Of a DNA stretch of 38,745 nt, positions 7,563-26,254 are shown piece by piece (the stretch's first letter is position 1; each line of letters opens with the position of its first letter). Under the pieces are notes generated by a model, which saw nothing but the letters and a program-made list of their open reading frames with translations, searched no databases and had not been told where the DNA came from. The position numbers and the translations under genes are program-made. The DNA comes from a virus: IMG/VR virus record IMGVR_UViG_3300047668_001250, positions 1 to 38,745 of that record; one strand, written 5' to 3'.

Positions 7563-8517
7563 TTAATTTTTGTGCTGACCTTGGTAATGAATTTACATAA
7601 ACATAATTTGCTATGATAGGTAAGATATGACTTGCTTCGGCATACACCATTTGAGTCTGTTGATTACTTACCTTACCCCAACTACATGCTTCATCTAATG
7701 TGCTACTTGAACATGCTCCGTCTCTTACATCTGCTACTGTAATTTGAACCGCGTACTTATGCAGTGGTACCTCGGTTCCTAACATTTCAGCCGCGACTAC
7801 AATATCTTGTGCAAAGTTTTTTGGTACTCCGCCGCCTACCATAAACAATCCTGTATCTTTTGCTTTAATCTTTAACTCAGTTAATTCTTTAAGGTCTGCT
7901 ATACTATCGATAATGCAGTAGTATTCTTCTTCTATTCTATGTTTAAGCAAACCGAATCCTGCGGCACTGTCATTCAAAGCAGGACAGAAGATGGGTACGC
8001 CTGCTTCATAACATTCATTGACTAAACTGTTTGGAGTATGTTTACCTAAAAGATTTAGAAACTCTCTGGAACTCATTATACTACCTTCACTATACCGAGT
8101 TGCAATATCACAAACATATTGATCGACTTTCTTTAAATCTTCTTCATAGATATACGTATCATAGATTCTATCGATACCTTTTTGTCTGAGTTCATCATCA
8201 TCGACTTTTGTTGTTCCTTCGTAATGATGATATCCTAAAGCCTCATACAAATCCATGTCAATAACACTTGCTCCAGTAGCAACTATTATGTCTACCATGT
8301 TAAGTCTTACTAAGTCTCTATATAGTTGAAGACAACCAGCGGCTTGCGTTGAACCAGCAATTGTTAGAATGATTGTACAGTTAGGATCCTCATTCATTTG
8401 CTTGAATAATTGACAAGCATTATAGAGTTCTCTGGAAGTGAAAGATGTGTGTGCTAATGATTCTACATAATCACTCACGTCCATTTTAGTAAAGTCGATA
8501 TGTTCTATTTTATTCAT
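7543..8517 (-). CDS. Deoxyhypusine synthase-like, probable homospermidine synthase
   Basis: The 324-residue product belongs to the deoxyhypusine synthase family. SWGKVS holds Lys282, the equivalent of the catalytic Lys that carries the aminobutyl group, preceded by DGACSSSTLDEAC. GGGVPKNF and TGASVIDMD are NAD-site motifs. In bacteria, which lack eIF5A, such homologues make homospermidine from putrescine or spermidine with NAD. As first gene of the cassette it would use the putrescine made by the adjacent agmatinase. The ATG lies 5 nt after a late-type TAAATA and lacks a Shine-Dalgarno, predicting a leaderless mRNA. Product identity is inference; the family is firm. Confidence 0.9.
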   Translation of the reverse strand: MNKIEHIDFTKMDVSDYVESLAHTSFTSRELYNACQLFKQMNEDPNCTIILTIAGSTQAAGCLQLYRDLVRLNMVDIIVATGASVIDMDLYEALGYHHYEGTTKVDDDELRQKGIDRIYDTYIYEEDLKKVDQYVCDIATRYSEGSIMSSREFLNLLGKHTPNSLVNECYEAGVPIFCPALNDSAAGFGLLKHRIEEEYYCIIDSIADLKELTELKIKAKDTGLFMVGGGVPKNFAQDIVVAAEMLGTEVPLHKYAVQITVADVRDGACSSSTLDEACSWGKVSNQQTQMVYAEASHILPIIANYVYVNSLPRSAQKLNELIRN

Positions 8518-8522
8518 AACAA

Positions 8523-8528
8523 TATTTA
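8523..8528 (-). promoter_or_regulatory. Late-type promoter, leaderless arrangement, polyamine cassette
   Basis: CACTAAATATTGTTATG on the - strand: TAAATA ends 5 nt before the start codon at 8517. If transcription begins 6-7 nt after the element, as in T4, the mRNA starts at the ATG. Confidence 0.65.
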
Positions 8529-8544
8529 GTGAGATTTCAGCAAC

Positions 8545-8850
8545 CTACACATTTTTATTCGCCCTTTTTTTGTTATCAAACTTTTCATCTATGGGTTGTA
8601 ATGTCCATCGGTCATGTACTACTTCACATACAGTACACTTCCAGTAACTGACACCATCGTATTTGCCTCGTACTTCAATGCCAACTACGTTTTTACCAAA
8701 GTGTTTTGGTGCACCTGGTTTACAGCCGTACATTGATCCAGTCTGCATTGCTTTACGCAGAGTATAGCCTTTACGTTCAAAGTGTTCAGTAATCGTTTCC
8801 TCTTCTTCCCATGCAATATTGCAACTTGGACATTGATTTGGACTACTCAT
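8545..8850 (-). CDS. Zinc-ribbon-like small protein (101 aa)
   Basis: Two CxxC pairs, CPSC near residue 8 and CTVC near residue 73, could bind one zinc. Between them is a basic, Gly-containing stretch with TITEHFERKGY and VGIEVRGKYDGVSYWKC, and the tail is Lys/Asn-rich (DNKKRANKNV). The arrangement suggests a nucleic-acid or protein-binding zinc ribbon, but no exact family is recognised. Its start overlaps the stop of the 59-residue basic gene (ATGA), and GGAGACGAGGA provides the ribosome site. It is transcribed toward the polyamine cassette, 27 nt away. Confidence 0.7.
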   Translation of the reverse strand: MSSPNQCPSCNIAWEEEETITEHFERKGYTLRKAMQTGSMYGCKPGAPKHFGKNVVGIEVRGKYDGVSYWKCTVCEVVHDRWTLQPIDEKFDNKKRANKNV

Positions 8851-9026
8851 TCCTCGTCTCCTTTTCGTAATTCGTCTTTTTGAACTCTACGGAAACGTTT
8901 GTTGTATCCACGTTTGATTGACTTAGCAACACCACTGTTCGTTAGATAGACGTAAAACCCACGTGCCTTGGTTAGTGCATCATACTCTGCACCGCCCTTC
9001 AAGGGTATTCGTTTTTTCTTAGACAT
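8847..9026 (-). CDS. Small basic protein (59 aa)
   Basis: The 59-codon frame begins MSKKKRIPLKGGAEYDALT, then ARGFYVYLTNSGVAKSIK and RGYNKRFRRVQKDELRKGDEE. It is strongly basic (many Lys/Arg), so nucleic-acid binding is plausible, but no family is recognised. It overlaps the next gene by 4 nt (ATGA) and the previous one by 8 nt, typical of a real phage operon member. The GGAG of the next gene's ribosome site is inside its last codons. Confidence 0.7.
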   Translation of the reverse strand: MSKKKRIPLKGGAEYDALTKARGFYVYLTNSGVAKSIKRGYNKRFRRVQKDELRKGDEE

Positions 9027-9180
9027 CGGGTTTGTACTCCAAAAAAGTATAGAACTTAAACCATAGAAATGAAATATCTAAACAATGCTCAACTAATGAT
9101 ATTGAGATAGAAGGAAGCAAGTAGACAGTCTTTTCATACGTCCACTGATTGCTGAAACGATATACTCTTTTACTTGTCAT
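9019..9180 (-). CDS. Small hypothetical protein (53 aa)
   Basis: The frame MTSKRVYRFSNQWTYEKTV, then a hydrophobic-aromatic part (LLPSISISLVEHCLDISFLWFKFYTF) and LEYKPDV, starts 11 nt after an AGAGGTC ribosome site. Its end overlaps the 59-residue gene by 8 nt. It lies 16 nt downstream of the tRNA-Arg(UCU) gene, so it is probably co-transcribed with it. No family is recognised; the hydrophobic stretch could be amphipathic or membrane-associated. Confidence 0.6.
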   Translation of the reverse strand: MTSKRVYRFSNQWTYEKTVYLLPSISISLVEHCLDISFLWFKFYTFLEYKPDV

Positions 9181-9196
9181 AATGACCTCTGTTAAT

Positions 9197-9272
9197 TGGT
9201 CCGCCCTCCAGGATTCGAACCTGGGACCTACTGCTTAGAAGGCAGTTGTTCTATCCACTGAACTAAGAGCGG
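9197..9272 (-). tRNA. tRNA-Arg (anticodon UCU)
   Basis: Cloverleaf on the - strand: acceptor CCGCTCT/AGGGCGG, anticodon stem ACTGC/GCAGT with loop CTTCTAA (anticodon TCT), T-arm GGTTCGAATCC, discriminator A and encoded CCA. AGA is a frequent codon in this AT-rich sequence, so the phage probably supplements host decoding. Confidence 0.95.
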
Positions 9273-9293
9273 TAAAACTTTCTTTGTGTTGAT

Positions 9294-9370
9294 TGGCGCG
9301 CCTGAAAGGATTCGAACCTCTGACTTCCTGGTTCGTAGCCAGGTACTCTATCCAGCTGAGTTACAGGCGC
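9294..9370 (-). tRNA. tRNA-Arg (anticodon ACG)
   Basis: Cloverleaf on the - strand: acceptor GCGCCTG/CAGGCGC, anticodon stem CCTGG/CCAGG with loop CTACGAA (anticodon ACG, needs A-to-I editing), T-arm GGTTCGAATCC, discriminator G and encoded CCA. Its first ten bases are also the last codons and stop of the gene ending at 9361. Confidence 0.95.
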
Positions 9371-9675
9371 GGGGTTGTATTAATTGATGTAATGTTTCTA
9401 ATTAAGAAACTTCTCCACCCTTCTGCTTTTGTATCAAAGACTGCAAGACTGTTTTCAGGATTCTTAATAACCCTTTCTTTCTTTTCTTCGCCTTCTTTGA
9501 TTACCACTTTAGGTAAGGTTTCTGGTTGTAATGTACAAGTCATTACACGTTCATCGCCATTGATCTTTGTAAAAGTAACTTCTACTAGGTCTTTGACAAG
9601 AACATCTTTAACTTCTGATCTGAAATTGTTCCATTCTTCATCAGTCCAATTTTGATCTGGAGTCAATATAGTCAT
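9361..9675 (-). CDS. SH3-barrel (WYL_2/Sm-like) phage protein (104 aa)
   Basis: The core LVKDLVEVTFTKINGDERVMTCTLQPETLP followed by SLAVFDTKAEGWRSFLIRNI is the pattern of the WYL_2 or Sm-like SH3-barrel family common in T4-like phages: a short barrel with GDxRxMxCTL and a terminal VxDxxxxxWRSF strand. It may bind nucleic acid; the actual role is unknown. The stop codon (9361-9363) falls inside the tRNA-Arg(ACG) gene, overlapping it by 10 nt, so RNase P cleavage at the tRNA 5' end would remove the stop from this mRNA. It follows the 46-residue gene by 3 nt. Confidence 0.85.
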   Translation of the reverse strand: MTILTPDQNWTDEEWNNFRSEVKDVLVKDLVEVTFTKINGDERVMTCTLQPETLPKVVIKEGEEKKERVIKNPENSLAVFDTKAEGWRSFLIRNITSINTTPRL

Positions 9676-9678
9676 AAA

Positions 9679-9819
9679 CTATCCTTTTGTTTTTTGTGAT
9701 TTATAATAAGCCATCAAATCTTCCCAACGAAAGAGTTGTCTTCTGTCGGAGCACCAGAACCAACCTTTATAGTATGGGTCGTTTGCTTTTGATTTGTTAT
9801 TTTCCATTGTTGCGTACAT
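9679..9819 (-). CDS. Small hypothetical protein (46 aa)
   Basis: The frame MYATMENNKSKANDPYYKGWFW, then CSDRRQLFRWEDLMAYYKSQKTKG, is basic and aromatic (PYYKGWFWCSDRRQLFRWEDL). TAGGAACAAAT upstream is a ribosome site; a second ATG is four codons in. It sits 3 nt before the SH3-barrel gene and just after the candidate structured RNA, so that RNA may be its leader. No family is recognised. Confidence 0.65.
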   Translation of the reverse strand: MYATMENNKSKANDPYYKGWFWCSDRRQLFRWEDLMAYYKSQKTKG

Positions 9820-9836
9820 ATTTGTTCCTAAAAAGA

Positions 9837-9953
9837 GAGTCTCTAACAGTGTAAATCTTAAGACTTACCTAACCCTTTTAATGGGCTCCTGAAGAGACTC
9901 AGAATGTTTAACGCAACCCTTAGCAATAATTAGCAATTTAACGTTTTGCGTTA
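9837..9953 (-). ncRNA. Candidate structured RNA or 5' leader
   Basis: This stretch without a gene can form two domains on the - strand. Domain 1: TAACGCA (9947-9953) pairs with TGCGTTA (9909-9915), enclosing TTGCTAATTATTGCTAA. Domain 2: AGAGACTC's partner arms at 9893-9900 and 9837-9844 pair (8 bp) and enclose a small AGCCC/GGGTT hairpin (9871-9887) plus the near-palindrome 9851-9868 (GTAAGTCTTAAGATTTAC). TATAAT (9962-9967) just upstream could be a -10, but its -35 is poor. It does not match any riboswitch I recognise. Alternatives are a leader of the 46-residue gene or an independent small RNA. Confidence 0.4.
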
Positions 9954-9971
9954 TGTGTAGTATTATACTAC

Positions 9972-10571
9972 TTAATGAGAATTAAATAAAGCGTTTTGGG
10001 TAGCCTGATCTTTCGGAGTCGGACCGTTACCTTGAGACACCATACCTAATTTTCCGCCTTGTGCTATAATTCTGTCTACCATGTCTTCAAACTCAATTGG
10101 TTTCAAGTCAGTATGTTCGACAGATACACACAAGAATCTAGGGTCAATCGCACCGTCTAACAACACTCTGTTAGAGTGTAAGTGCCCATGTACATTGCAC
10201 CCGAATCTACCCAACTGTTCAACGTGAATCGGTATATGAGTGAACACTATACCATTAGTCACATGACAGCCTCGGATATCTTTGAATACATCTACGTACT
10301 TGTGCAACTTCAAGTTATCATGGTTACCCTTGACAAGTATCTTAATGCCGTTCATCTGCTTGACTTTATCAAGTCCTCTAGCATTGAAGGCAATGTCACC
10401 TAACATGTATACTTTATCAGTAGGCTTCACAATCTCGTTGTGGGCTTGAACCATAGCATCTTCCATTTCTTCTATAGTATCAAAATCACGGCATTTAGAC
10501 CCGTCCGGATTGGTGAAATTGATCACGTTATTGTGACCGAAGTGTAAATCTGCTGTAAAGAAATGAGACAT
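9972..10571 (-). CDS. Calcineurin-like metallophosphoesterase (199 aa)
   Basis: All metal-binding blocks are present in order: DLHFGH (residues 8-13), LGDIAF, KGNHDN, FTHIPIH and VHGHLHS. This is the phage or bacterial YfcE/MPP-type metallophosphoesterase, a two-metal hydrolase of phosphoesters; the substrate cannot be told from sequence. Similar enzymes are common in T4-like phages. It is transcribed from the consensus promoter at 10601-10629, about 25 nt before its ATG, with AAAGGAACTAAT as the ribosome site. It is therefore probably an early gene under the same regulator as the small genes at 5081 and 5667. Confidence 0.9.
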   Translation of the reverse strand: MSHFFTADLHFGHNNVINFTNPDGSKCRDFDTIEEMEDAMVQAHNEIVKPTDKVYMLGDIAFNARGLDKVKQMNGIKILVKGNHDNLKLHKYVDVFKDIRGCHVTNGIVFTHIPIHVEQLGRFGCNVHGHLHSNRVLLDGAIDPRFLCVSVEHTDLKPIEFEDMVDRIIAQGGKLGMVSQGNGPTPKDQATQNALFNSH

Positions 10572-10600
10572 ATTAGTTCCTTTGTGCGTTAATAGAGTAT

Positions 10601-10629
10601 ATTATAGCACCCTTTGGGTATATTGTCAA
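10601..10629 (-). promoter_or_regulatory. Consensus sigma-70 promoter with inverted repeat in spacer
   Basis: TTGACA (10624-10629), 17 bp, TATAAT (10601-10606) on the - strand. The spacer holds ACCC-AAA-GGGT (10609-10619): the same GGGT/ACCC half-sites as at 5124 and 5704, but in opposite order and with a 3-nt centre. It drives the metallophosphoesterase. Confidence 0.92.
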
Positions 10630-10663
10630 GCCTTTTAAAAAATTATTTGCACTATCTATTCCT

Positions 10664-10671
10664 TATAAATA
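10664..10671 (+). promoter_or_regulatory. T4-consensus late promoter TATAAATA, leaderless arrangement
   Basis: The exact T4 late consensus TATAAATA ends 5 nt before the ATG at 10677. No Shine-Dalgarno lies between. It starts the sugar-activation operon and is back-to-back with the early promoter at 10601. Confidence 0.75.
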
Positions 10672-10676
10672 TATGC

Positions 10677-11384
10677 ATGAATATATTAATACCAGCCGCA
10701 GGGAAAGGGTCTCGTTTTGACGGACACTATGACTCACCAAAAAACATGATTGATGTCAAAGGGGAGCCGATGTTAGTGGCTGCCGCTAGAAGTCTAGGAC
10801 TTGACGGACCAGATAATACATTGATCTTTGTACTCCCAGAAAACTTTGAGACTAATTCACATCGGACGATAGGGACACATTTGCAAGAGGAGTTTCCAGA
10901 CTCAGTAGTACTAGTAGTAGTCGGTGAGACTGACGGAGCCGCACACACAGCCCAATTTGCAGACAAGTATATTGATAACGATGAAGAACTTTTTATTGCA
11001 AATTGTGATCAAATCATGCATTGGGATCCTAAACTACGAGAAGAAGTGTTCGACAAGTTAAGAGAGCATGATGCAGGAATTATCACAGTTGAAAGCGATG
11101 AGCAGAAACATAGTTATCTAAATTTACAGACCGGACAGATTATTGAAAAAGAACGTCAGCCTGGAAATATGGCATTAACTGGACTTCATTACTTTAAACG
11201 CGGATCAGATTTTGTATCTAGTACACGATTAATGATGCAGTCAGGTGTAAAATCTTTAGGTGAATACTATATTGGGCCTGCATTCAACTGGTTTGAAGGC
11301 GATGCCGGATTCTATCAAATTATGCCAGAAGATATTTCTTTCATTGGCACACCAGATGACTTAAAAGTATACCTTGAAAAGTGA
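10677..11384 (+). CDS. Sugar-phosphate nucleotidyltransferase (235 aa)
   Basis: The N terminus NILIPAAGKGSRF is the nucleotide-binding loop of the NTP_transferase family (GxGxR), followed by SPKNMIDVKGEPML and the metal Asp in ANCDQIMHWD. These enzymes join a sugar-1-phosphate to NTP, releasing PPi. The sequence near LTGLHYFKRG and YYIGPAFNWF matches the sugar-site half of the fold. The specificity (CDP-, GDP-, UDP- or dTDP-) is not readable. The ATG at 10677 is preferred to an upstream frame because it begins the conserved MNILIPAAG and sits 5 nt after TATAAATA. Overlap with the cupin gene is GTGA. Confidence 0.9.
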   Translation: MNILIPAAGKGSRFDGHYDSPKNMIDVKGEPMLVAAARSLGLDGPDNTLIFVLPENFETNSHRTIGTHLQEEFPDSVVLVVVGETDGAAHTAQFADKYIDNDEELFIANCDQIMHWDPKLREEVFDKLREHDAGIITVESDEQKHSYLNLQTGQIIEKERQPGNMALTGLHYFKRGSDFVSSTRLMMQSGVKSLGEYYIGPAFNWFEGDAGFYQIMPEDISFIGTPDDLKVYLEK

Positions 11385-13890: not shown

Positions 13891-14765
13891 AGAAATTTAA
13901 AAATATTGCAGTAGTATTAAGAGGTCATGTGAGAACGTGGCATTTTAATGCACCTAAAGTATTTGACTTTTATGACAGTATTGCTGAAAATGTAGACTAT
14001 TATTTTATAACTTGGGACAGTTCTAACACTGACAGAATTGAAGGGACATTCAAAGATCAAAATTTAATTCATTTTCAAATTTTAAATTGGCAGTTAGAAA
14101 ATTCTATATTAACTGGTGGCAGTCAAGCAGGAAAATGGTACAATGGACATCTCGGTCCTCCTTTTATGAACATGTTAGCATTACCGCATATAAGAAGACA
14201 AGAAAAACACTTAGGTAACAAGTATGAGTGTGTATTTGATACACGCCCTGATGTTTTACCCGTCAGAAATATCTATATTAAAGGAGAATTTACTGGAGAG
14301 CCTGTTCCGTTAACAAAACCAAAAGACAAATCTGTGTACGTGACTGGTTTAGAATTACAGACAAATTTGTCTCCGGATAATCATAAGACAGGGTTACAAG
14401 ACATTGCAATAAAAGATTGGTGTTTGTATATGAACAGTGATGTATATGAAGTAATGACAAACCGTTATCATAAGGATCACTTTGTATACACACTAGGTAC
14501 AGGTCCTGGAACACAAATAGAATTAAGAGAGTATATTGCTGAGAATAATATGCACCTATGTACTAATGATTGGGTACAAGCATACATGATGAGACCTTGT
14601 GTGTATCAACTTGATTGGCTCGACTCTCAATCTACAGGTGCATTAATAGATTGTTCTAACACTTGGCAAAGTTTAGATCCTGTTGAAAAAATTGCATTAT
14701 GTGAAAGATATGGAATTTCTTTATCTGATTATGTTGACACACCTTCTATTACTTGCAAGATTTAA
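13887..14765 (+). CDS. Glycosyltransferase-like protein (292 aa)
   Basis: The N terminus KNIAVVLRGHVRTWHFN and the block YECVFDTRPDVLPV (a DxD-like acidic site, DTRPD) resemble the LRGHxRT/R-x-D families found in phage and bacterial surface-glycan clusters. VDYYFITWDSSNTD and AYMMRPCVYQLDW follow. It may transfer the activated sugar made by the upstream enzymes. The start is GTG overlapping the previous stop (GTGA). The 3' end overlaps, tail to tail, the - strand metallopeptidase-like gene by 17 nt. The family call is moderate; the acceptor is unknown. Confidence 0.65.
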   Translation: MKKFKNIAVVLRGHVRTWHFNAPKVFDFYDSIAENVDYYFITWDSSNTDRIEGTFKDQNLIHFQILNWQLENSILTGGSQAGKWYNGHLGPPFMNMLALPHIRRQEKHLGNKYECVFDTRPDVLPVRNIYIKGEFTGEPVPLTKPKDKSVYVTGLELQTNLSPDNHKTGLQDIAIKDWCLYMNSDVYEVMTNRYHKDHFVYTLGTGPGTQIELREYIAENNMHLCTNDWVQAYMMRPCVYQLDWLDSQSTGALIDCSNTWQSLDPVEKIALCERYGISLSDYVDTPSITCKI

Positions 14766-15195
14766 GTAATTCTTGTAAAACTTTAGGTTGTCTCTGTCTA
14801 ACATCTACCTCCCAAGGGAGCATCTGATAGTCTTTATAATGTATGTCATTTAAATTGACTTCATACGGTACAGTATCCCAGATAAAAATACCATCATGTG
14901 TAATCATCAGTTTACCTTCATGCATTTGATTAACATGTATGAGTTCATGCACCAAAGGTATCATTAGATCAACTACACGTAACGTAGAGTTAAGTCTGAT
15001 ATACTTTTTACTTTTGTTGTCTAGTGTAGAATCCCCATATACATTATTAGGCATTGATGTAAATTCAATAGTTAGTTCATCAGGCAACAACATATACCGT
15101 GACATGTTTTCACAGATTGCTTGTGCTATTTTACACTTGTTAGCATCGTTGTCATCTAGTATTTGACCTTTAGGAAAAAGAAATTTTAATTGCAT
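14749..15195 (-). CDS. HExxH zinc-metallopeptidase-like protein (148 aa)
   Basis: VVDLMIPLVHELIHVNQMHEG contains HELIH, the zinc-binding HExxH motif with the catalytic Glu. LPWEVDVRQRQPKVL near the C terminus gives a likely third ligand, the Glu in WEVD. The fold looks like minimal zincin or SprT-like peptidases; no signal peptide is seen, so it should be cytoplasmic or virion-associated. Its ATG is 5 nt after a late-type TAAATA, without a Shine-Dalgarno. The 3' end overlaps the glycosyltransferase-like gene by 17 nt. Confidence 0.75.
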   Translation of the reverse strand: MQLKFLFPKGQILDDNDANKCKIAQAICENMSRYMLLPDELTIEFTSMPNNVYGDSTLDNKSKKYIRLNSTLRVVDLMIPLVHELIHVNQMHEGKLMITHDGIFIWDTVPYEVNLNDIHYKDYQMLPWEVDVRQRQPKVLQELLKSCK

Positions 15196-15200
15196 ACATG

Positions 15201-15217
15201 TATTTACTCACTAAATA
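15201..15217. promoter_or_regulatory. Divergent late-type promoters, leaderless on both sides
   Basis: Within 28 nt between two genes, TAAATA at 15201-15206 (- strand) ends 5 nt before the ATG at 15195, and TAAATA at 15212-15217 (+ strand) ends 6 nt before the ATG at 15224. The elements are only 5 nt apart, so the two polymerases should compete. Confidence 0.65.
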
Positions 15218-15223
15218 CTGTAT

Positions 15224-15856
15224 ATGGCTACGTTGACAGATTTTATAACAAATTGGGGAGAAGTCGTAGAACTTGATTTCCCAAAGATGGATTTAAACAG
15301 AGTGAAAGATATCTGTGACAAGCATCCAGGTTGGAAAGAATACCAAGGTCATAAAAAGCCGAACAATCGTCATGGACTAAGTGTTACGAGTTTAGATGGA
15401 AAATTTGACGGGCCTGACTTAAATAGTTTGAGAGAGTGGGCAAAAATGCACGGTAAGTCTTACAATGAAGGAGACTTCAAAACAAGAACAAATGTCTGTG
15501 CATTGATACCAGAACTAGATGAGTTCTTAAACTTCTGGGAACCTAATTTAGGCAGAACACATTTTCTTAGATTAGATCAAGGCGGACACTTTCCACCTCA
15601 TAGAGATAACGGAGCGATAGTAGCAGTACCGACATTTAGAATTCTTGTGCCTATATACAACTTCGGTCCTAATGACATGAAGTGGATACAAGAAGATCGT
15701 GTGTTGAACTTAGAATTAGGTGCAACTTACTTTATCAATACAAGTAGATTGCATAGTTTATTCAGTTTTGTTGATAACTGTCTAATGTTAGTATTAAATA
15801 TCAACCAAGATGAGCATATTTTAAATAAAATGGTGAAGAAAATTGTCGCAATATAA
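15224..15856 (+). CDS. 2OG-Fe(II) oxygenase, aspartyl/asparaginyl hydroxylase-like (210 aa)
   Basis: LDQGGHFPPHRDNGAIV gives the HxD-type ligands (H-P-P-H-R-D), followed by PTFRILVPIYNF and, 50 residues on, TSRLHSLFSFVDNCLMLVLNI with the distal His. This layout is that of the aspartyl/asparaginyl beta-hydroxylase-like double-stranded beta-helix. It would couple 2-oxoglutarate decarboxylation to hydroxylation of a protein or small molecule. It overlaps the following PP-loop gene by 14 nt, so the two are one transcription unit. Substrate unknown. A second, differently built oxygenase is at 20955. Confidence 0.75.
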   Translation: MATLTDFITNWGEVVELDFPKMDLNRVKDICDKHPGWKEYQGHKKPNNRHGLSVTSLDGKFDGPDLNSLREWAKMHGKSYNEGDFKTRTNVCALIPELDEFLNFWEPNLGRTHFLRLDQGGHFPPHRDNGAIVAVPTFRILVPIYNFGPNDMKWIQEDRVLNLELGATYFINTSRLHSLFSFVDNCLMLVLNINQDEHILNKMVKKIVAI

Positions 15857-16844
15857 AACAGTTCCTTTTTATAATAATTGGTTAGACATGTCTGGCTTTA
15901 TTGCTGAAGATGGTAAAGGGCATAAACTCAATATATCTCAGAAAATGATGACTGAGTTAGGAACGTTTAATGACGAAAAATTAAAGAAGTGGAGAATAGA
16001 AGCCGCACAAAGATGTCATGCATCATTGGGCCCGTTCCCAGCATTGTGTTTTAGTGGCGGCATTGATAGTCAAGCAATGTTACATTGCTTTGCAGAAGCA
16101 GATTTAGAGGCTCATGTCGTTATCTTTACATTTAAAGATGATTTAAACAAACATGATGTTGATTCTGCTAAAGCATATTGTCATACATTTGATATACCCT
16201 ATAGAGAAATAGAATTTGATATCCTTTCATTTTTAGCAAGAGATAACTTAACAGTAACACAAGAGTATGGTGGGGTAAGTCCGCAATTTAATACTCATTA
16301 TAGATTTGTAGAAATTTTAACTCATATGGGTTACACTGGTGTATGTTTTGGTGGTAACGCTCCAGACAGAGTAAATGGAGACTACGGTAGTTCTTTTGAA
16401 AAGAATGCGATGCATTGGCTTAAGTGCCATGACAAGTTTCAGATAGCAGTACAGGGTAGTTTTTTATCATTCAGTCCTGAATTAGCATTAGCATTAGCAG
16501 TATCTACGCCTGAAGCAGGGGTAACTCTTACTGAAGATCATGCGGACTGGGACACCTATAAAGAAGTACGTCATGCAAAGTATTTGCAAAAAGTAATAGG
16601 CTATAAACGTATAGGATTTGACATTATTCAACAAGATACGAAGTATACAGGTTTTGAAAAAGTGAAAGAACTTATTGAAGAACAATCCGGAGATGGTTGG
16701 GCGTTTGAAAGAAAGTTTAGAGATCCACTAGCAAAGTTACCGGGATTGAATACAGATATGAACAAATATCAAATAGCATTAACTACAGAACAACAACTAT
16801 TCTTAGACTCAATCTACTTCAAGCACTTTCCCCCTGGGCCCTGA
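15843..16844 (+). CDS. PP-loop ATP pyrophosphatase, asparagine-synthase-like (333 aa)
   Basis: PALCFSGGIDSQAMLHCF has the SGGxDS PP-loop that binds ATP pyrophosphate in asparagine synthases, NAD synthases and tRNA thiolases. AHVVIFTFKDDLNKHDVDSAKAYC and FGGNAPDRVNGDYG follow. There is no N-terminal glutaminase domain, so it is a stand-alone synthetase that adenylates a carboxyl or carbonyl group. The likely start is TTG at 15843, with GGTGAAG upstream and overlap of the oxygenase gene; an ATG at 15888 is the alternative. The 3' end overlaps the - strand gene by 36 nt. Pairing with an oxygenase suggests a two-step modification of one substrate. Confidence 0.75.
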   Translation: MSQYKTVPFYNNWLDMSGFIAEDGKGHKLNISQKMMTELGTFNDEKLKKWRIEAAQRCHASLGPFPALCFSGGIDSQAMLHCFAEADLEAHVVIFTFKDDLNKHDVDSAKAYCHTFDIPYREIEFDILSFLARDNLTVTQEYGGVSPQFNTHYRFVEILTHMGYTGVCFGGNAPDRVNGDYGSSFEKNAMHWLKCHDKFQIAVQGSFLSFSPELALALAVSTPEAGVTLTEDHADWDTYKEVRHAKYLQKVIGYKRIGFDIIQQDTKYTGFEKVKELIEEQSGDGWAFERKFRDPLAKLPGLNTDMNKYQIALTTEQQLFLDSIYFKHFPPGP

Positions 16845-17627
16845 TCCTCTTCCTGGATTAGCAACTAAGTCAGCACCTACATAATTTACTTTTGTTTTCT
16901 GCTGAGTAGTTGCCCATATACGATTGTGTAAATGAATGTTATAAGACTTGTATGTTATACCTTCTAATCTAGGATCTTTGTACGGATTCAAATGTGTTAC
17001 AAGTATTCCGTAATGTTTGTGTGCAATTTCTTTAGTTTCCCAGTCTCTAATCATATCTTCTTGTTCAATAAATCTTTGTTGAATGTATTCTTCAGTAGCC
17101 CATTTGTCAATGTCACCGTAGATTTTTAAATTAGTGCCTGGCAAAATGTCTGAATCTAGTTTATATACTGGGATTTGACCTTCACTTATATTACATGAAA
17201 ACCATGTATCTTCCCAGTCTCCTTCGTAATCGATTATGTTAGGGAATCCAAATGCACACCAAACTGATATAGTTTGTCCTGTTTGTAATAAGATTTTTAA
17301 TCCATCTGCTGATCTAGGATCTTTCCAGTGTAGATTCTGTGGCCAATCTTCTTGTTCTATTCGTAATAGAATATTGTCTTCATATTCATAATCGCATTTG
17401 TCTACGATGCCTCTAAATCGTTCTTTATAACCTTCGTTATAAACAAATTGTATATCGGGGTATTTCTTACATACTTCTGTCGCATAATGCATACTGCGTT
17501 TGCCGTGTTCTGCTAAGTTACCATTTAATATAACAAGATCAACATCAGGTAATTCTAAATCACTGGGTTCAGTTGGCTCGTTAAAGCCGTAATCTAAATC
17601 ATGTATTAGATGTATTTTAAAGGACAT
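16809..17627 (-). CDS. Divergent metallophosphoesterase-like protein (272 aa)
   Basis: The layout follows the calcineurin-like phosphoesterase fold but several metal ligands are changed: IHDLDYGFNEP for the first DxH, ILNGNLAEHG where GDxxxxG is expected, VYNEGYKERF for GNH(D/E), then LVTHLNPYKDPRL and VGADLVANPGRGSGPRG for the C-terminal GHxH. It may be inactive, use other ligands, or not be a phosphoesterase. The ATG at 17627 is 5 nt after a late-type TAAATA; an open frame upstream to 17990 is rejected because it would run through the promoter and the subtilase gene. It overlaps the PP-loop gene by 36 nt, tail to tail. Confidence 0.6.
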   Translation of the reverse strand: MSFKIHLIHDLDYGFNEPTEPSDLELPDVDLVILNGNLAEHGKRSMHYATEVCKKYPDIQFVYNEGYKERFRGIVDKCDYEYEDNILLRIEQEDWPQNLHWKDPRSADGLKILLQTGQTISVWCAFGFPNIIDYEGDWEDTWFSCNISEGQIPVYKLDSDILPGTNLKIYGDIDKWATEEYIQQRFIEQEDMIRDWETKEIAHKHYGILVTHLNPYKDPRLEGITYKSYNIHLHNRIWATTQQKTKVNYVGADLVANPGRGSGPRGKVLEVD

Positions 17628-17632: not shown

Positions 17633-17704
17633 TATTTAATCGATAAATAGTAATGTGAATTATATCTGCGTTTATCCTACTGTATTCTGTAGTAGTGATA
17701 AATA
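17633..17704. promoter_or_regulatory. Divergent late-type promoters between phosphoesterase-like and subtilase genes
   Basis: TAAATA on the - strand (17633-17638) ends 5 nt before the ATG at 17627. On the + strand GATAAATA occurs twice (17644-17649 and 17699-17704); the second leaves a 41-nt leader with GGAG before the subtilase ATG at 17746. Confidence 0.55.
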
Positions 17705-20943: not shown

Positions 20944-20949
20944 TAAATA
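20944..20949 (+). promoter_or_regulatory. Late-type promoter, leaderless arrangement
   Basis: GATCATAAATATCTATATG: TAAATA ends 5 nt before the ATG at 20955, with no Shine-Dalgarno between. Confidence 0.65.
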
Positions 20950-20954: not shown

Positions 20955-21728
20955 ATGATCGTTGATGAATACAAAGAAGACAAACCCAATAAGCATTGGT
21001 CAGACATTGCACAACCCCTTCATGCATATAAGTATTCAAACGTGTATGATGAACAATTCTACAAGACGTTAAAAGATACAGTTGTAACTCATTTAGATAG
21101 ACCGAACAGACTTACATATCTCACTCACAGAACTTCATTTAAACATGATAACAAGTCATTACATGTTGTATCACATAAACAAAATGCAAGAGAACAAGAA
21201 GTAGTCTACGATTTAACTGCTGAAAGAGATTGGTGGCACCAGACTCCTGATACTATCGTTGATTGGAGTTGGAATAAATTAAGAAACTCAATTCATCCTG
21301 TATTTTTTCATCACTTAAGTACATTCAAAAATCAAGCTCCACATGATGAAAACTGGATACCTTTTCGTTTTCATTTTAATTATCTAAAATATCAAAGTTA
21401 TCTTCACGCACATGCAGACATGGCAGATCAATTCTTTAACACACCTACTGCTAGAAGTGCAAGAGCAAGATCATTGACATTTTATCTACATGACCATGTG
21501 GAAGATCAAGGTGGAGAGTTGTATTTCTTAAGCGGGTATGTTTATAAACCGAAACAGAATGAAGCAATATCTATTAATGGTAATGCCGCATTTCATGGAG
21601 TTAATTCTAATATGAGTCCAGACAAAAAACCTAGACTAGCATTTACAGTACGTTGGGCACACAAAGATGATTTATATCTTCCGGGTTCATTAGACAACGC
21701 AATGTATAAATTGGATTTCCCTGAATGA
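20955..21728 (+). CDS. 2OG-Fe(II) oxygenase, prolyl-4-hydroxylase-like (257 aa)
   Basis: YLHAHADMADQ gives the HxD metal ligands; GGELYFLSG, GNAAFHGVNSN (distal His) and PRLAFTVRW (2-oxoglutarate-binding Arg) follow in the right order. This is the P4H-type double-stranded beta-helix widespread in T4-like cyanophages and pelagiphages. It would hydroxylate an unknown substrate using O2, 2-oxoglutarate and Fe(II). It starts 5 nt after TAAATA without a Shine-Dalgarno and overlaps the GNAT gene by 4 nt (ATGA), so the two are co-expressed. Confidence 0.85.
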   Translation: MIVDEYKEDKPNKHWSDIAQPLHAYKYSNVYDEQFYKTLKDTVVTHLDRPNRLTYLTHRTSFKHDNKSLHVVSHKQNAREQEVVYDLTAERDWWHQTPDTIVDWSWNKLRNSIHPVFFHHLSTFKNQAPHDENWIPFRFHFNYLKYQSYLHAHADMADQFFNTPTARSARARSLTFYLHDHVEDQGGELYFLSGYVYKPKQNEAISINGNAAFHGVNSNMSPDKKPRLAFTVRWAHKDDLYLPGSLDNAMYKLDFPE

Positions 21729-22819: not shown

Positions 22820-22829
22820 AGTATGTGTC

Positions 22830-23063: not shown

Positions 23064-23079
23064 AAGATTTTGAATCAGA

Positions 23080-23736
23080 TTAAAAGTGGTAGTTATAACT
23101 CACAAATAAACTGTCTTCATCTATCATACCTGAAAAATCATCAGCGGTAAAGTCTGACCAACCTAGTGTCACATGTCCTTTTAAAAGATCGAAACCTTTT
23201 GATACAGTCCAGTGTGTTCCTATGCCTTCTCCGTCGCCATACGCCACGTCAACAACTTTTAACATTCCAGTTGAAAACTCAGTGTAGTCACCTGCATCAT
23301 CTTGTCCCATATAGTGAGACAAAGTAACACCTAGTATACTTGCTGATAAGAGTATTTCTTCATAGTCTAAAGATGAGTCTCCGTTGTATGCGTAATCTAT
23401 ATAGGCTACGTTAAAACCGATATGTTCCCAATCTTTTTTAAGACCGACAACTGTATCGATTTCGTGTGAGGCTTTGCCGTCACCGAAGTCTACTTCTGAT
23501 ACCCACACACTTCCGTACATGCCACCCCACTCTGCATCTAACGATGCTGATAGTTGATGGTTACCTACGTGTTGTGACTGACCTCTGAAGATATAGTCTG
23601 ATGATATGCCAACTGTTCCACCCATTGATGGTCCGGCGCTGACACTTGACGCAATACAAACTAATGATAATGCTATCACTAATTTAATCGCGGTATCGAA
23701 ATGAGCCGATAGTAGACTCTTTATGCTTTCTAACAT
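23080..23736 (-). CDS. Outer-membrane beta-barrel protein, Gcw_chp/TIGR02001-like (218 aa)
   Basis: A cleaved signal peptide (AIKLVIALSLVCIASSVSAG, site after VSA) is followed by GISSDYIFRGQSQ, the diagnostic SxxYxFRGxSQ motif of the TIGR02001/Gcw_chp family. Alternating amphipathic strands continue to the C-terminal SLFVSYNYHF, which ends in Phe as outer-membrane proteins do for BAM recognition. The family is bacterial and usually chromosomal, so a phage copy is unusual. It may change the surface of infected cells, for example to block other phages or alter uptake. It has its own terminator and GCAAGGAGAAATAAT ribosome site. Confidence 0.88.
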   Translation of the reverse strand: MLESIKSLLSAHFDTAIKLVIALSLVCIASSVSAGPSMGGTVGISSDYIFRGQSQHVGNHQLSASLDAEWGGMYGSVWVSEVDFGDGKASHEIDTVVGLKKDWEHIGFNVAYIDYAYNGDSSLDYEEILLSASILGVTLSHYMGQDDAGDYTEFSTGMLKVVDVAYGDGEGIGTHWTVSKGFDLLKGHVTLGWSDFTADDFSGMIDEDSLFVSYNYHF

Positions 23737-23789
23737 ATTATTTCTCCTTGCATTGAAGCAACTGTAATTATAATAAGACGGGTTAATTC

Positions 23790-23939
23790 TTATTTGCGTT
23801 TGGTTTTGTATTTAGAGATTGATCCTCTGCCGCCACCGCTTCCGGTGCCACCTGATGATTTCTTATCTTTGCGTTTTTTCATCACAAAGAATACAACTCC
23901 AGCAATAATTGCAATTGCTAATATTGTTTGAAAATCCAT
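23790..23939 (-). CDS. Single-span membrane protein with basic Gly-rich tail (49 aa)
   Basis: MDFQTILAIAIIAGVVFFVMKK gives one N-terminal membrane helix, and KRKDKKSSGGTGSGGGRGSIS with KYKTKRK forms a basic, Gly-rich cytoplasmic tail. GGAGGAACAAT is a strong ribosome site, and a late-type TAAATA lies 57 nt upstream. The layout resembles small phage membrane anchors or pinholins, but no family is recognised. It precedes the outer-membrane barrel gene by 53 nt. Confidence 0.7.
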   Translation of the reverse strand: MDFQTILAIAIIAGVVFFVMKKRKDKKSSGGTGSGGGRGSISKYKTKRK

Positions 23940-23996
23940 ATTGTTCCTCCATTAGATTTCATTACTTACGGATCAACAAATGCTTTTCCGTGTTAT

Positions 23997-24002
23997 TATT
24001 TA
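23997..24002 (-). promoter_or_regulatory. Late-type promoter of the 49-aa membrane protein
   Basis: GACTAAATAATAAC on the - strand, 57 nt before the ATG at 23939. Opposite-facing copies for the + strand lie at 24020 and 24118. Confidence 0.5.
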
Positions 24003-24117
24003 GTCGGTTTTACCCATCCTAAATAGTATTATATGTAAAATCCGTTATTTATGCCCAAATTATCCTTATTAAACCAACAATTAAAAAATACTTCTTTATA
24101 AACACCCTAAAATGTAC

Positions 24118-24123
24118 TAAATA
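24118..24123 (+). promoter_or_regulatory. Late-type promoter of the Gly-rich membrane protein
   Basis: TACTAAATATTAG, 45 nt before the ATG at 24169, with the strong GAGGAGGACT ribosome site in the leader. A second TAAATA at 24020-24025 is further upstream. Apart from these, 23940-24168 shows no gene. Confidence 0.5.
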
Positions 24124-24168
24124 TTAGTGAGGAAATGCAATAATGCAAATATTTGAGGAGGACTCAAT

Positions 24169-24390
24169 ATGAATAATGTAATGGCAATGATCAATGATAT
24201 GATCAAAGGACTTACTGGTATCGCTGTTGGCCTATTAGGGCTTGGCGTAGTAGTAGGCGTACTATTTGGCGACCTAATGGGTGTCAATGTTGTCGGTGGA
24301 TTGTTAAATTTAGTGAACAGTTTAGGCGAAGCCGGATTTGTTGGCTTACTAGTAGCAATCATTTTAATTCATTTATTTACGAAAGAATAA
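24169..24390 (+). CDS. Small two-span Gly-rich membrane protein (73 aa)
   Basis: Two hydrophobic segments, GLTGIAVGLLGLGVVVGVLF and AGFVGLLVAIILIHLF, flank a Gly/Asn-rich loop (GDLMGVNVVGGLLNLVNSLGE); the ends are short and polar. Small proteins like this recur in marine T4-like phages as I recall, without known function. Holin-like topology or a membrane-embedded virion component are both possible. GAGGAGGACTCAAT upstream is the strongest ribosome site in this region, suggesting high expression, and a strong terminator follows after 14 nt. Confidence 0.75.
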   Translation: MNNVMAMINDMIKGLTGIAVGLLGLGVVVGVLFGDLMGVNVVGGLLNLVNSLGEAGFVGLLVAIILIHLFTKE

Positions 24391-24404
24391 ATTTAAGAAT
24401 TTAT

Positions 24405-24430
24405 AAAAGCAGACTTCGGTCTGCTTTTTT
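24405..24430. terminator. Strong bidirectional terminator
   Basis: AAAAGCAGAC, a TTCG tetraloop and GTCTGC followed by six T. With the A-run on the other side it also serves the converging ferredoxin reductase gene, which stops at 24435. Confidence 0.9.
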
Positions 24431-24434
24431 GTGG

Positions 24435-25154
24435 CTATTGATCCACGAATGCTTTTTCAATAACGAACTCGCCAGTCTCTCTGTTTGACCCTTCAGTCAT
24501 GCCTAAGTCTTTGCACCATTCAACTACGTCATAGTTAAACTGCATGTTGCCACAAGCCATAACACGATCACCTGGCTGTATGAATCTATTGTCGATTCGT
24601 TGATCACCTTCGCCAGTGACTAGAGGAGTGTATATCAATTTGTCTTTTAACAATTCATGTATGTCAGGCTCGTCTTCAAAGATTGAGGTGAGTTCTTTGT
24701 TATAGGCTAAGTCATCTCTATGTCTAGCAGAATGAACTAAGTGAATACTATCAAATGATTCAATAATATCTAAGTCTCTAATCGTTGACATGAAAGGAGC
24801 AAGTCCTGTTCCTGTTGCCAACAACAATAAACGTTTACCACCTGGAGTAAGAAAAGCATTTCGTAATGTTCCAGTAGTCTTCGGTAAGAGTACAAGTTCA
24901 TCTCCTACTTTAACATTTGATAATTCATTTGTCAGAGGACCTACATTCTTAATACTTAAGAACTCTAAGTTCTCAGCCCAGGGAGGACTGACAACACTGT
25001 ATGCTCTAATGACATTTTTCTTATACTTGTCACTCATCATTCCGATCATAGCAAACTCACCGGACTCAAATCTAAAAGATTCATCTCTAGTTGTTTTAAT
25101 ACTAAAAGTCCTATCAGACCAATGAACTATATTTGTTACGTTTACTTTTATCAT
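24435..25154 (-). CDS. fpr: Ferredoxin/flavodoxin-NADP+ reductase, Fpr-type (239 aa)
   Basis: RAYSVVSPPW is the FAD-binding RxYS motif; GTGLAPFMSTIRD and MACGNMQFNYDV are the NADP-binding motifs; the C terminus GEFVIEKAFVDQ matches the (G)xYxIExAFVEK ending of Pseudomonas/Azotobacter-type Fpr. It passes electrons between NADPH and ferredoxin or flavodoxin in the cytoplasm. I know of few phage-encoded copies. The ATG is only 5 nt after the CCA end of the tRNA-Leu gene and has no Shine-Dalgarno, so tRNA processing would leave a nearly leaderless mRNA. It could feed the radical SAM enzyme at 26254 or Fe-S assembly. Confidence 0.93.
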   Translation of the reverse strand: MIKVNVTNIVHWSDRTFSIKTTRDESFRFESGEFAMIGMMSDKYKKNVIRAYSVVSPPWAENLEFLSIKNVGPLTNELSNVKVGDELVLLPKTTGTLRNAFLTPGGKRLLLLATGTGLAPFMSTIRDLDIIESFDSIHLVHSARHRDDLAYNKELTSIFEDEPDIHELLKDKLIYTPLVTGEGDQRIDNRFIQPGDRVMACGNMQFNYDVVEWCKDLGMTEGSNRETGEFVIEKAFVDQ

Positions 25155-25159
25155 AATAT

Positions 25160-25246
25160 TGGTACCCGAGGCCGGACTTGAACCGGCATGATATTTCTAT
25201 CGAGGGATTTTAAGTCCCTTGTGTCTACCAATTCCACCACTCGGGC
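25160..25246 (-). tRNA. tRNA-Leu (anticodon UAA)
   Basis: Class II tRNA on the - strand: acceptor GCCCGAG/CTCGGGT (G1-U72), anticodon loop CTTAAAA (TAA), long variable arm, T-arm GGTTCAAGTCC, discriminator A and encoded CCA. Its first base is also the last base of the preceding gene's TAG. Confidence 0.95.
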
Positions 25247-25452
25247 TAATCTAGTTTCCATTCCATTTTTTCTTCTAGTGCGACTTGCACGCCATGTATG
25301 TAATCTCTATCTTCTTCACTTAGTACTTCCCAAGCAAAGGTAACTTTGTCTAACAAATCTGTTACTTTGTCTGGGTCAGCAAGATGTTCGTTGGCTTCCA
25401 TGATACGTTGTATCTCATCCATTCTTGCATTCAACTTTTCACGTAATTTCAT
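25246..25452 (-). CDS. Small conserved phage protein between tRNA genes (68 aa)
   Basis: MKLREKLNARMDEIQRIMEANE, with LADPDKVTDLLDKVTFAWEVLSEEDRDYIHGVQVALEEKMEWKLD, is a helical, charged protein. I recall close relatives in many T4-like marine phages, also next to tRNA genes, without known function. The ATG at 25452 has AGAGAG upstream; a longer frame to 25530 runs into the tRNA-Ala gene and is rejected. Its TAG shares one base with the tRNA-Leu 5' end, so processing there removes the final G. Confidence 0.85.
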   Translation of the reverse strand: MKLREKLNARMDEIQRIMEANEHLADPDKVTDLLDKVTFAWEVLSEEDRDYIHGVQVALEEKMEWKLD

Positions 25453-25469
25453 AAACTCTCTATAGTATA

Positions 25470-25545
25470 TGGTGGAGCGAATAGGGATCGAACCTACGAC
25501 CTGCTGGTTGCAAACCAGCCGCTCTCCCAACTGAGCTACCGCCCC
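25470..25545 (-). tRNA. tRNA-Ala (anticodon UGC)
   Basis: Cloverleaf on the - strand: acceptor GGGGCGG/TCGCTCC with the G3-U70 pair that defines alanine identity, anticodon loop TTTGCAA (TGC), T-arm GGTTCGATCCC, discriminator A and encoded CCA. Confidence 0.95.
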
Positions 25546-25552
25546 AATAAAC

Positions 25553-25627
25553 TGGAGCTCCCTGTCCGATTTGAACGGACGACCTACTGCTTACAAAGCA
25601 GTTACTCTACCACTGAGTTAAGGGAGC
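25553..25627 (-). tRNA. tRNA-Thr (anticodon UGU)
   Basis: Cloverleaf on the - strand: acceptor GCTCCCT/AGGGAGC, anticodon stem ACTGC/GCAGT with loop TTTGTAA (TGT), T-arm CCGTTCAAATCGG, discriminator T and encoded CCA. First tRNA after the dual promoter at 25635-25675. Confidence 0.93.
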
Positions 25628-25634
25628 ATCATTA

Positions 25635-25675
25635 TATTTAGTGAGTATTATATCAGACACATTATTTTTTGTCAA
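25635..25675 (-). promoter_or_regulatory. Sigma-70 and late-type promoters of the tRNA-fpr unit
   Basis: On the - strand TTGACA (25670-25675), 17 bp and TATAAT (25647-25652) form a perfect sigma-70 promoter without a spacer palindrome. TAAATA (25635-25640) ends 7 nt before the tRNA-Thr 5' end. The unit may be read both early and late. Confidence 0.88.
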
Positions 25676-25691
25676 AGGTTTTCTTACCCAT

Positions 25692-25697
25692 TAAATA
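25692..25697 (+). promoter_or_regulatory. Late-type promoter, leaderless arrangement
   Basis: CATTAAATAGTATTATGG: TAAATA ends 5 nt before the ATG at 25703, with no Shine-Dalgarno. Back-to-back with the tRNA promoter. Confidence 0.65.
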
Positions 25698-25702
25698 GTA
25701 TT

Positions 25703-26254
25703 ATGGACTTATTATCATTCTCTCACGGACAAACTCAAAGTAAACTTTGGTTATGTGATACTATTGAACAGTATATACCACAAGATGCCGTAGTTTCTAT
25801 TATTGGGTGCTGGTATAATATGTTAGGTTTTATGCTTTTAACTCGTAAACGAGACATGTATCAGCACATCTTAGGTATAGATATCAACTCAGAAGCGACT
25901 AGAGGAGCTGATATACTCTGTCAGGGCTTTATGATTGGTGGAAATGCACAGTTAAGGAACGTTACGGCAGATGCTTCTACGTATCATATTCAAGGACACA
26001 GTGTAGTAATTAACACAAGTGTAGAACATATGACTGATGACTGGTTTAACAATGTTGATCCAAATGCATTAGTTTGTATTCAATCTAGTGACGTATCGAA
26101 AGAAGAAGAACCTTGGTTAGTGACGAATCCATGTTCTAATATAGAATCGTTACAAGAAAGATTTCCACTAACAGAGTTGCTATTCGCAGAAACAAAACTC
26201 TTTGATTATGGGAGTTCAAGTTACAATCGTTACATGATTATTGGTAGAAAATAA
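25703..26254 (+). CDS. Class I SAM-dependent methyltransferase-like protein (183 aa)
   Basis: VVSIIGCWYNMLGFMLL resembles methyltransferase motif I (G-x-W-Y in place of GxGxG), ILGIDINSEA is motif II with the acidic ribose-binding residue, and VVINTSVEHMTDDWFNNV corresponds to motif IV/V. It is a small Rossmann-fold enzyme whose substrate is unknown. The overlap with the radical SAM gene (TAATG) indicates coupled synthesis and probably one pathway. Motif I is divergent, so SAM binding is likely but not certain. Confidence 0.7.
   Translation: MDLLSFSHGQTQSKLWLCDTIEQYIPQDAVVSIIGCWYNMLGFMLLTRKRDMYQHILGIDINSEATRGADILCQGFMIGGNAQLRNVTADASTYHIQGHSVVINTSVEHMTDDWFNNVDPNALVCIQSSDVSKEEEPWLVTNPCSNIESLQERFPLTELLFAETKLFDYGSSSYNRYMIIGRK

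What the first reader, a model, noticed from the sequence alone, without database searches (positions are those of the whole stretch)
8517..25703. TAAATA placed 5-6 nt before ATG at seven genes: predicted leaderless late mRNAs
Starts at 8517(-), 10677(+), 15195(-), 15224(+), 17627(-), 20955(+) and 25703(+) all have TAAATA ending 5, 5, 5, 6, 5, 5 and 5 nt before the ATG, with no Shine-Dalgarno. At 10664 it is the full T4 consensus TATAAATA. T4 late transcription starts about 6-7 nt after this element, so these mRNAs should begin at or next to the start codon. Other genes (for example 27978, 31083, 35058) have the same hexamer about 30 nt away and a Shine-Dalgarno. The hexamer alone is common in AT-rich DNA, but a near-fixed spacing in seven first genes is not expected by chance.
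Basis: partly seen in the sequence, partly recalled or inferred. Interest (0 to 1): 0.8.

Follow-up and report, generated by a model that had tools for sequence, protein, structure and literature searches.

The report
Late promoters that make leaderless mRNAs
In an uncultured T4-type phage lineage, and in two Pelagibacter phages, the viral late-gene switch TAAATA sits exactly five letters before the start codon of many genes, so their messages probably begin at the start codon itself and are read without the usual ribosome-landing sequence.

Summary
All seven TAAATA-N5/N6-ATG starts are in the window; shuffles give about 0.35. Across nine other fragments of the lineage the distance from TAAATA to start ATGs is bimodal: a sharp spike at N5 (54 starts, against a mean of 2 for other arrangements of the same letters), nothing at N7-N9, and a broad group at N20-32 whose genes carry Shine-Dalgarno sites. 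The spacing persists in 72 of 94 homologues while flanking DNA diverges. Leadered promoters show a pyrimidine-purine step 5/6 nt after TAAATA, exactly where the ATG falls in the leaderless class. The lineage is T4-like, related to RaK2/PA5oct jumbo phages, with a gp55-type late sigma. HTVC008M and Mosig show the same spike, on genes such as gp2, gp4, gp48 and gp3; T4, Syn9, RaK2 and PA5oct do not. Best reading: a gp55-type late promoter fused to the start codon, making leaderless mRNAs. 5' ends and timing are unmeasured. New variant of a known kind; confidence 0.84, interest 0.62.

The parts
8523..8528 (-). TAAATA late-promoter element, N5 before ATG 8517(-)
   Evidence: kept at N5 in the 3 close homologues with the same start
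7543..8517 (-). predicted leaderless gene, deoxyhypusine synthase-like protein, 324 aa
   Evidence: Pfam PF01916, E 5.3e-87; no SD
10664..10671 (+). TATAAATA (full T4 consensus), N5 before ATG 10677(+)
   Evidence: 8 of 14 homologues keep N5, including 3 below 65% identity
10677..11384 (+). predicted leaderless gene, MobA-like NTP transferase, 235 aa; protein begins MNILIPAAG, so translation must start at or next to this ATG
   Evidence: Pfam PF12804 matched from residue 4; phrog_3980
15201..15206 (-). TAAATA, N5 before ATG 15195(-)
   Evidence: 11 of 11 homologues keep N4-N5
14749..15195 (-). predicted leaderless gene, unknown protein, 148 aa
   Evidence: phrog_16532 / phrog_10499, unknown function
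15212..15217 (+). TAAATA, N6 before ATG 15224(+); back-to-back with the 15195(-) promoter inside a 28-bp intergenic gap
   Evidence: 12 of 14 homologues keep N5/N6
15224..15856 (+). predicted leaderless gene, 210 aa, weak Asp/Arg beta-hydroxylase similarity
   Evidence: Pfam PF05118 E 0.017, below cut-off; 41% identical to a Mosig protein annotated Asp_Arg_Hydrox
17633..17638 (-). TAAATA, N5 before ATG 17627(-)
   Evidence: 14 of 14 homologues keep N4/N5
16809..17627 (-). predicted leaderless gene, 272 aa, no family match (N-terminus resembles a metallophosphoesterase by eye only)
   Evidence: the ORF can be extended to 17990 with TTG, but homologues align from M at 17627
20944..20949 (+). TAAATA, N5 before ATG 20955(+)
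   Evidence: 11 of 14 homologues keep N4/N5
20955..21728 (+). predicted leaderless gene, unknown protein, 257 aa
   Evidence: no PHROG or Pfam match
25692..25697 (+). TAAATA, N5 before ATG 25703(+)
   Evidence: 13 of 15 homologues keep N5
25703..26254 (+). predicted leaderless gene, unknown protein, 183 aa
   Evidence: no PHROG or Pfam match
28009..28014 (-). contrast: TAAATA of the leadered promoter of 27978(-), N30, with an AAAGGAG SD
   Evidence: kept with an SD in a 92% homologue
31115..31120 (-). contrast: TAAATA of the leadered promoter of 31083(-), N31, with an SD
   Evidence: the gene is MetK-like by its N-terminus, phrog_1569
35091..35096 (-). contrast: TAAATA of the leadered promoter of 35058(-), N32, with an AGGAG SD

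Best explanation
TAAATA is the -10 element of a T4-type late promoter read by the phage's gp55-type sigma factor on host RNA polymerase. In T4 the element covers -13 to -6 of the transcript (PMC1524935). Five intervening bases therefore put +1 on the A of the ATG, and six put it one base before. Transcription of these genes thus starts at the AUG. The mRNA has no leader and no Shine-Dalgarno site, and is translated by direct recognition of the 5'-terminal AUG. The same phages use the same promoter element with a 15-27 nt leader and a Shine-Dalgarno site for other genes, so the lineage has two fixed modes of late gene expression. Shown here: the motif, its fixed spacing, its conservation, absence of an SD, the shared start-site signature, and presence of the late sigma in the lineage.
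For: Spacing: 54 N5 starts in nine kin fragments against mean 2.07 and maximum 8 for permuted hexamers, 0 at N7-N9, and a second broad group at N20-32. One hundred N5 starts in 16 genomes fall into 43 protein families. Conservation: 72 of 94 distinct homologues of the seven window genes keep TAAATA-N4/6-start, while flanking DNA is unconserved. No SD: median anti-SD energy +0.9 kcal/mol in kin leaderless genes versus -6.2 in leadered TAAATA genes, p 2e-18. Start codon is ATG in 67 of 70 N5/N6 cases, and in all 54 at N5. Initiator: the base before ATG is C/T in 31 of 31 non-redundant leaderless sites. In leadered promoters a pyrimidine-purine step peaks at exactly that place, 33 of 60 against about 16 elsewhere, and T4's own late promoters show the same T/A at that place. 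Regulator: a 317-aa protein in G002 matches phrog_12791 'sigma factor for late transcription', E 3.7e-71, also found in G015 and G017. HTVC008M N5 genes carry annotations such as gp2 (end protector), gp4 (head closure), gp48 (tube cap), a baseplate wedge subunit and tail completion; these starts were chosen by other annotators. Protein logic: the NTP transferase begins MNILIPAAG, leaving no room for another start.
Against: No 5' end has been mapped in any of these phages, as far as I could find. The window itself is a 38.7-kb fragment without gp55, and its seven genes are mostly enzymes or unknowns, so lateness is not shown for them. gp33 and gp45, the T4 co-activators, were not detected in the kin fragments by Pfam models, although the same search also misses them in RaK2 and PA5oct. 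Some homologues (L129 and L130 for 15224; distant DHS and NTP transferase relatives) lack the element, so it can be lost or replaced. The host is unknown.
Confidence: 0.84

Rival explanations
1. TAAATA-N5 is an RNA-level translation signal (an A/U-rich Kozak-like context as in Bacteroidota) inside a longer transcript that starts upstream.
For: The hexamer is A/U-rich and close to the start codon; SD-less A/U-rich initiation regions are known in Bacteroidota (own knowledge). Two window genes follow same-strand ORFs by 21-27 nt.
Against: The same hexamer also occurs in a second class about 25 nt upstream with an SD, where a translation signal makes no sense. Both classes share the pyrimidine-purine step 5/6 nt downstream. 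The spike is one base wide. The other genes of these phages clearly use SD sites. About half of the N5 starts (34 of 70) face a divergent gene, against 160 of 915 for all genes, as expected for promoters.
Confidence: 0.06
2. The hexamer is a host sigma-70 -10 element rather than a gp55 late promoter; mRNAs would still be leaderless, but the genes early or constitutive.
For: TAAATA differs from TATAAT only modestly; a weak T/A-rich patch lies at -38 to -35 relative to the ATG.
Against: No TTGACA-like element stands out upstream. The +1 implied by T4 late promoters fits exactly. In HTVC008M the class falls on T4-type late structural genes. gp55-type factors are present.
Confidence: 0.07
3. Chance: AT-rich DNA gives frequent TAAATA and the reader picked the matching cases.
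For: The hexamer occurs 53 times in the window on both strands.
Against: Shuffle and permuted-hexamer controls, conservation in homologues, and occurrence in pelagiphages; T4 and RaK2, also AT-rich, show no spike.
Confidence: 0.01
4. The real start codons lie elsewhere (upstream GTG/TTG or a downstream ATG with an SD), so the promoter only appears adjacent to the start.
For: 10677 and 17627 have upstream in-frame TTG codons.
Against: Homologues at 40-90% identity align from this methionine onward, and the DNA upstream of it is not conserved. The NTP transferase motif starts at residue 2. HTVC008M starts chosen by other annotators agree.
Confidence: 0.02

Closest known systems
T4-type late promoter (TATAAATA, gp55 sigma, gp33, gp45)
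   Same: Core element TAAATA; pyrimidine-purine step at -1/+1 in both; gp55-type sigma in the lineage.
   Different: T4 and Syn9 place the element 20-32 nt before the start codon with a leader and have no N5 class. Here about half of the TAAATA sites near gene starts are at N4-N6. gp33 and gp45 were not detected in kin.
ATAAATA late promoters predicted in jumbo phages CBB and GAP32 (PMC5259590)
   Same: Same element ahead of structural genes and a gp55-like sigma; the kin capsid protein is 66-69% identical to this group.
   Different: RaK2 and PA5oct show no N5 excess, nor do CBB and GAP32 by pattern count. The CBB paper passages read here do not mention leaderless mRNAs.
Leaderless mRNAs of phages and bacteria (lambda cI; the many leaderless mycobacterial mRNAs, PMC4633059; 5'-terminal AUG recognition, Brock et al. 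2008 as cited in PMC5312081)
   Same: AUG at or next to the 5' end, no SD, AUG strongly preferred.
   Different: In lambda it is a single repressor gene (own knowledge); here it is a recurrent promoter arrangement across more than 20 gene families of one phage lineage, built into the late promoter itself.
Pelagibacter phages HTVC008M and Mosig EXVC030M
   Same: Same N5 spike (11 and 6 starts), same element; gp2 is of this class in both.
   Different: Different T4-like branch (Kyanoviridae); HTVC008M gp33 matches its Pfam model and gp45 is annotated with only a weak match; element context ATAAATAGTA is more uniform. No paper found reports this feature.

Membership tests
T4-type late promoter | TATAAATA-like element with TAAATA core | tested here: met
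   the full 8-mer is present only at 10664 among the seven
T4-type late promoter | no -35 element | tested here: inconclusive
   only a weak T/A-rich patch at -38..-35 from the ATG, small sample
T4-type late promoter | transcription start 6 nt after the element | tested here: inconclusive
   sequence signature agrees; no 5' end data
T4-type late promoter | phage encodes gp55 late sigma | tested here: met
   in kin G002, G015 and G017; the window is a fragment without it
T4-type late promoter | gp33 co-activator and gp45 clamp | tested here: inconclusive
   not detected in kin fragments by Pfam models; fragments and divergence limit the test
T4-type late promoter | expression only late and coupled to replication | not testable with these tools
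   needs an infection time course
Leaderless mRNA | 5' end at or within a few nt of the AUG | not testable with these tools
   predicted from spacing; needs 5' end mapping
Leaderless mRNA | no Shine-Dalgarno | tested here: met
Leaderless mRNA | AUG as start codon | tested here: met
   kin: 67 of 70 N5/N6 starts; GTG/TTG only at N6
T4-like phage (gp23 capsid superfamily) | gp23-type major capsid protein | tested here: met
   PF07068 in kin G002, G003, G005, G013-G015, G017, G018; not in the window fragment itself

The most novel reading that the evidence does not exclude
These phages run a two-mode translation programme late in infection: one set of late mRNAs is leaderless and another carries SD leaders, and a change to the ribosome late in infection (host stress, or phage factors such as the bS21 that several of these phages encode) shifts output between the two sets. 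Leaderless promoters would then be a regulatory class and not just compact packing.
Probability: 0.15. Interest if true: 0.85.

Novelty: new variant of a known kind. Interest (0 to 1): 0.62.

Why it matters
It predicts, to the base, the 5' ends of dozens of phage mRNAs and says that a well-known viral promoter can be fused to the start codon so that one short element sets both transcription and translation start. It gives a ready experimental system (HTVC008M on Pelagibacter) for asking when and why leaderless translation is favoured. It also bears on gene-start calling in such phages: an SD-based caller may misplace these starts. T4, Syn9, RaK2 and PA5oct lack the class while phages of distant branches have it, which points to repeated origin or to a host-linked preference.

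Tried and rejected
Chance: rejected by shuffles, permuted hexamers and conservation. 11698(+) as an eighth site: rejected, since its closest homologues do not keep the hexamer. Host identity through the deoxyhypusine synthase: 80 cellular hits from many phyla at 55% or less, uninformative. Link with phage-encoded ribosomal protein bS21: present in G001, G004, G009, G011, HTVC008M and Mosig, but also in PA5oct, Vibrio 2.275.O, Phosso and G023/G025/G026/G028, which have no N5 excess, so not specific. Alphaproteobacterial hosts as the cause: Rhizobium phage RHph_I1_18 has 4 N5 starts against 0.07, but phiM12 and Cr30 have none, so not general; some RHph hits are not at annotated starts. Literature searches for leaderless T4-like late mRNAs found nothing relevant.
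Full report
CHECKING THE OBSERVATION. TATAAATA starts at 10664. The contrast genes 27978, 31083 and 35058 (all minus strand) have the hexamer 30-32 nt upstream and an SD. Dinucleotide-preserving shuffles of the upstream regions give 0.35 N5/N6 cases on average, maximum 4 in 2000, against 8 observed. The eighth case, 11698(+), is accidental. Five of the seven genes face a divergent neighbour; 8517 and 20955 follow a same-strand ORF by 27 and 21 nt.

WHAT THE WINDOW IS. It is a 38.7-kb IMG/VR virus fragment with ribonucleotide reductase, an endolysin, five tRNAs and many unknowns. Relatives of the seven genes lie on contigs of up to 128 kb. Several of those contigs carry a gp23-type capsid protein; that of G002 is 66-69% identical to jumbo phages RaK2/PA5oct/CBB/GAP32 and their kin. 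G002 also encodes a 317-aa protein matching the 'sigma factor for late transcription' family phrog_12791 with E 3.7e-71, followed by a phosphoesterase-like gene in a gp55-gp47-like order (the gp47 reading is mine from the sequence). So the lineage is T4-like and related to RaK2-type jumbo phages.

SPACING DISTRIBUTION. I called ORFs in the window, in 14 further environmental fragments (close and more distant kin) and in named phages, and measured the distance from every TAAATA to candidate start ATGs. In nine close-kin fragments (612 kb) the counts at N0..N12 are 0 2 5 4 6 54 11 0 0 0 2 4 2; the second group is broad, at N20-32. The 14 other arrangements of four A and two T give a mean of 2.07 and a maximum of 8 at N5. 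More distant kin (G009-G012) give 13 at N4 and 24 at N5. HTVC008M gives 11 at N5 (control mean 0.5), Mosig 6 (1.07), Rhizobium RHph_I1_18 4 (0.07) and P-SSM2 4 (0.43). T4 gives 1 with its peak at N28, Syn9 0, RaK2 1 and PA5oct 2. The 100 N5 starts of the 16 genomes counted belong to 43 protein families, 21 of them in the window and close kin. The empty zone N7-N9 is what one expects if a leader shorter than an SD region is useless, while no leader at all works (inference).

CONSERVATION. For the seven genes, 72 of 94 distinct homologues with an aligned N-terminus keep TAAATA-N4/6-start (15195: 11/11; 15224: 12/14; 17627: 14/14; 20955: 11/14; 25703: 13/15; 10677: 8/14; 8517: 3/12), in several cases at 38-60% protein identity, while the rest of the upstream DNA has diverged. 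The contrast genes keep their own arrangement, TAAATA far upstream plus an SD, in the close homologues. The 15195(-)/15224(+) pair is striking: two back-to-back promoters fill the whole 28-bp gap, the arrangement is kept in many relatives, and HTVC008M has the same design, with 26 bp, between its gp2 and gp4 genes.

NO SHINE-DALGARNO. Anti-SD duplex energy has median +0.9 kcal/mol for kin leaderless starts (1% at or below -4.5) and -6.2 for leadered TAAATA genes (69%), p 2e-18; random positions give 0.3 (6%). Start codons at N5/N6 are ATG in 67 of 70 cases, and the three exceptions are all at N6.

WHERE TRANSCRIPTION SHOULD START. In T4 the element covers -13 to -6 (PMC1524935), so N5 puts +1 on the A of ATG. 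The leadered promoters of the same phages carry an independent trace: a pyrimidine-purine step peaks at nucleotides 5/6 after TAAATA in 33 of 60 sites, against about 16 at other offsets. T4's own late promoters have the same preference, T 53% then A/G 78%. In the leaderless class the base before ATG is a pyrimidine in 31 of 31 non-redundant sites, although A or G precedes the first ATG of nearly half of the other genes. In the more distant kin the step in leadered promoters peaks one base earlier (16 of 36 at 4/5), which matches their extra N4 class. An RNA-level translation signal would explain none of this.

LATENESS. Not shown for the window genes. In HTVC008M the N5 genes carry independent annotations that include gp2, gp4, gp48, a baseplate wedge subunit, a baseplate wedge initiator, a tape-measure candidate and tail completion, plus a few others, while capsid, sheath and tube genes have SD leaders. 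In Mosig the class includes gp2 and an Asp/Arg hydroxylase. In the close kin it includes a virion structural protein (phrog_12928) and a superoxide dismutase. gp33 and gp45 were not found in the kin fragments by Pfam models, nor in RaK2 or PA5oct, and the CBB authors also failed to find them.

COMPARISON AND NOVELTY. The promoter is of a known kind, and ATAAATA late promoters have been predicted in CBB and GAP32 (PMC5259590). Leaderless mRNAs are also known. The combination, a T4-type late promoter systematically set so that +1 is the start codon in a whole class of genes, was not found in the literature available here, with the caveat that most subscription papers are not held. I rate it a new variant of a known kind.

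LIMITS. No transcript data exist here; ORF calls are simple; related fragments are not independent, which is why I give family counts; the host is unknown.

Noticed in passing
window 15195-15224: Two back-to-back late promoters fill a 28-bp gap between divergent starts; polymerases at the two would probably exclude each other. HTVC008M gp2/gp4 has the same design with 26 bp.
   Followed up: partly
window 11698(+): TAAATA-N6-ATG that looks like a coincidence: AGGA SD just upstream, and the hexamer is not kept in the closest homologues.
   Followed up: yes
window 7543-8517(-): Phage-borne deoxyhypusine synthase-like gene; nearest cellular relatives only 55% identical and scattered over phyla.
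   Followed up: partly
G001:37195-37350(-), G004, G009, G011, G022, HTVC008M, Mosig, PA5oct: Phage-encoded ribosomal protein bS21 in most large contigs with the N5 class, but also in phages without it.
   Followed up: partly
L226:904-1857: gp55-type late sigma is 317 aa with a long N-terminal part, against 185 aa in T4; family shared with RaK2-type jumbo phages.
   Followed up: partly
G009-G012: N4 is common beside N5, and the pyrimidine-purine step in leadered promoters is one base closer, suggesting a start-site shift in this branch.
   Followed up: partly
L168:12144-12719(-) (G001): Iron/manganese superoxide dismutase gene with a predicted leaderless start.
   Followed up: no
G002:56498(-): A 6429-aa ORF with TAAATA-N4-ATG at its start, probably a very large structural protein.
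   Followed up: no
kin N5 starts, -38 to -35 from the ATG: Weak T/A-rich patch upstream of leaderless promoters; could be an upstream contact or homologue redundancy.
   Followed up: no
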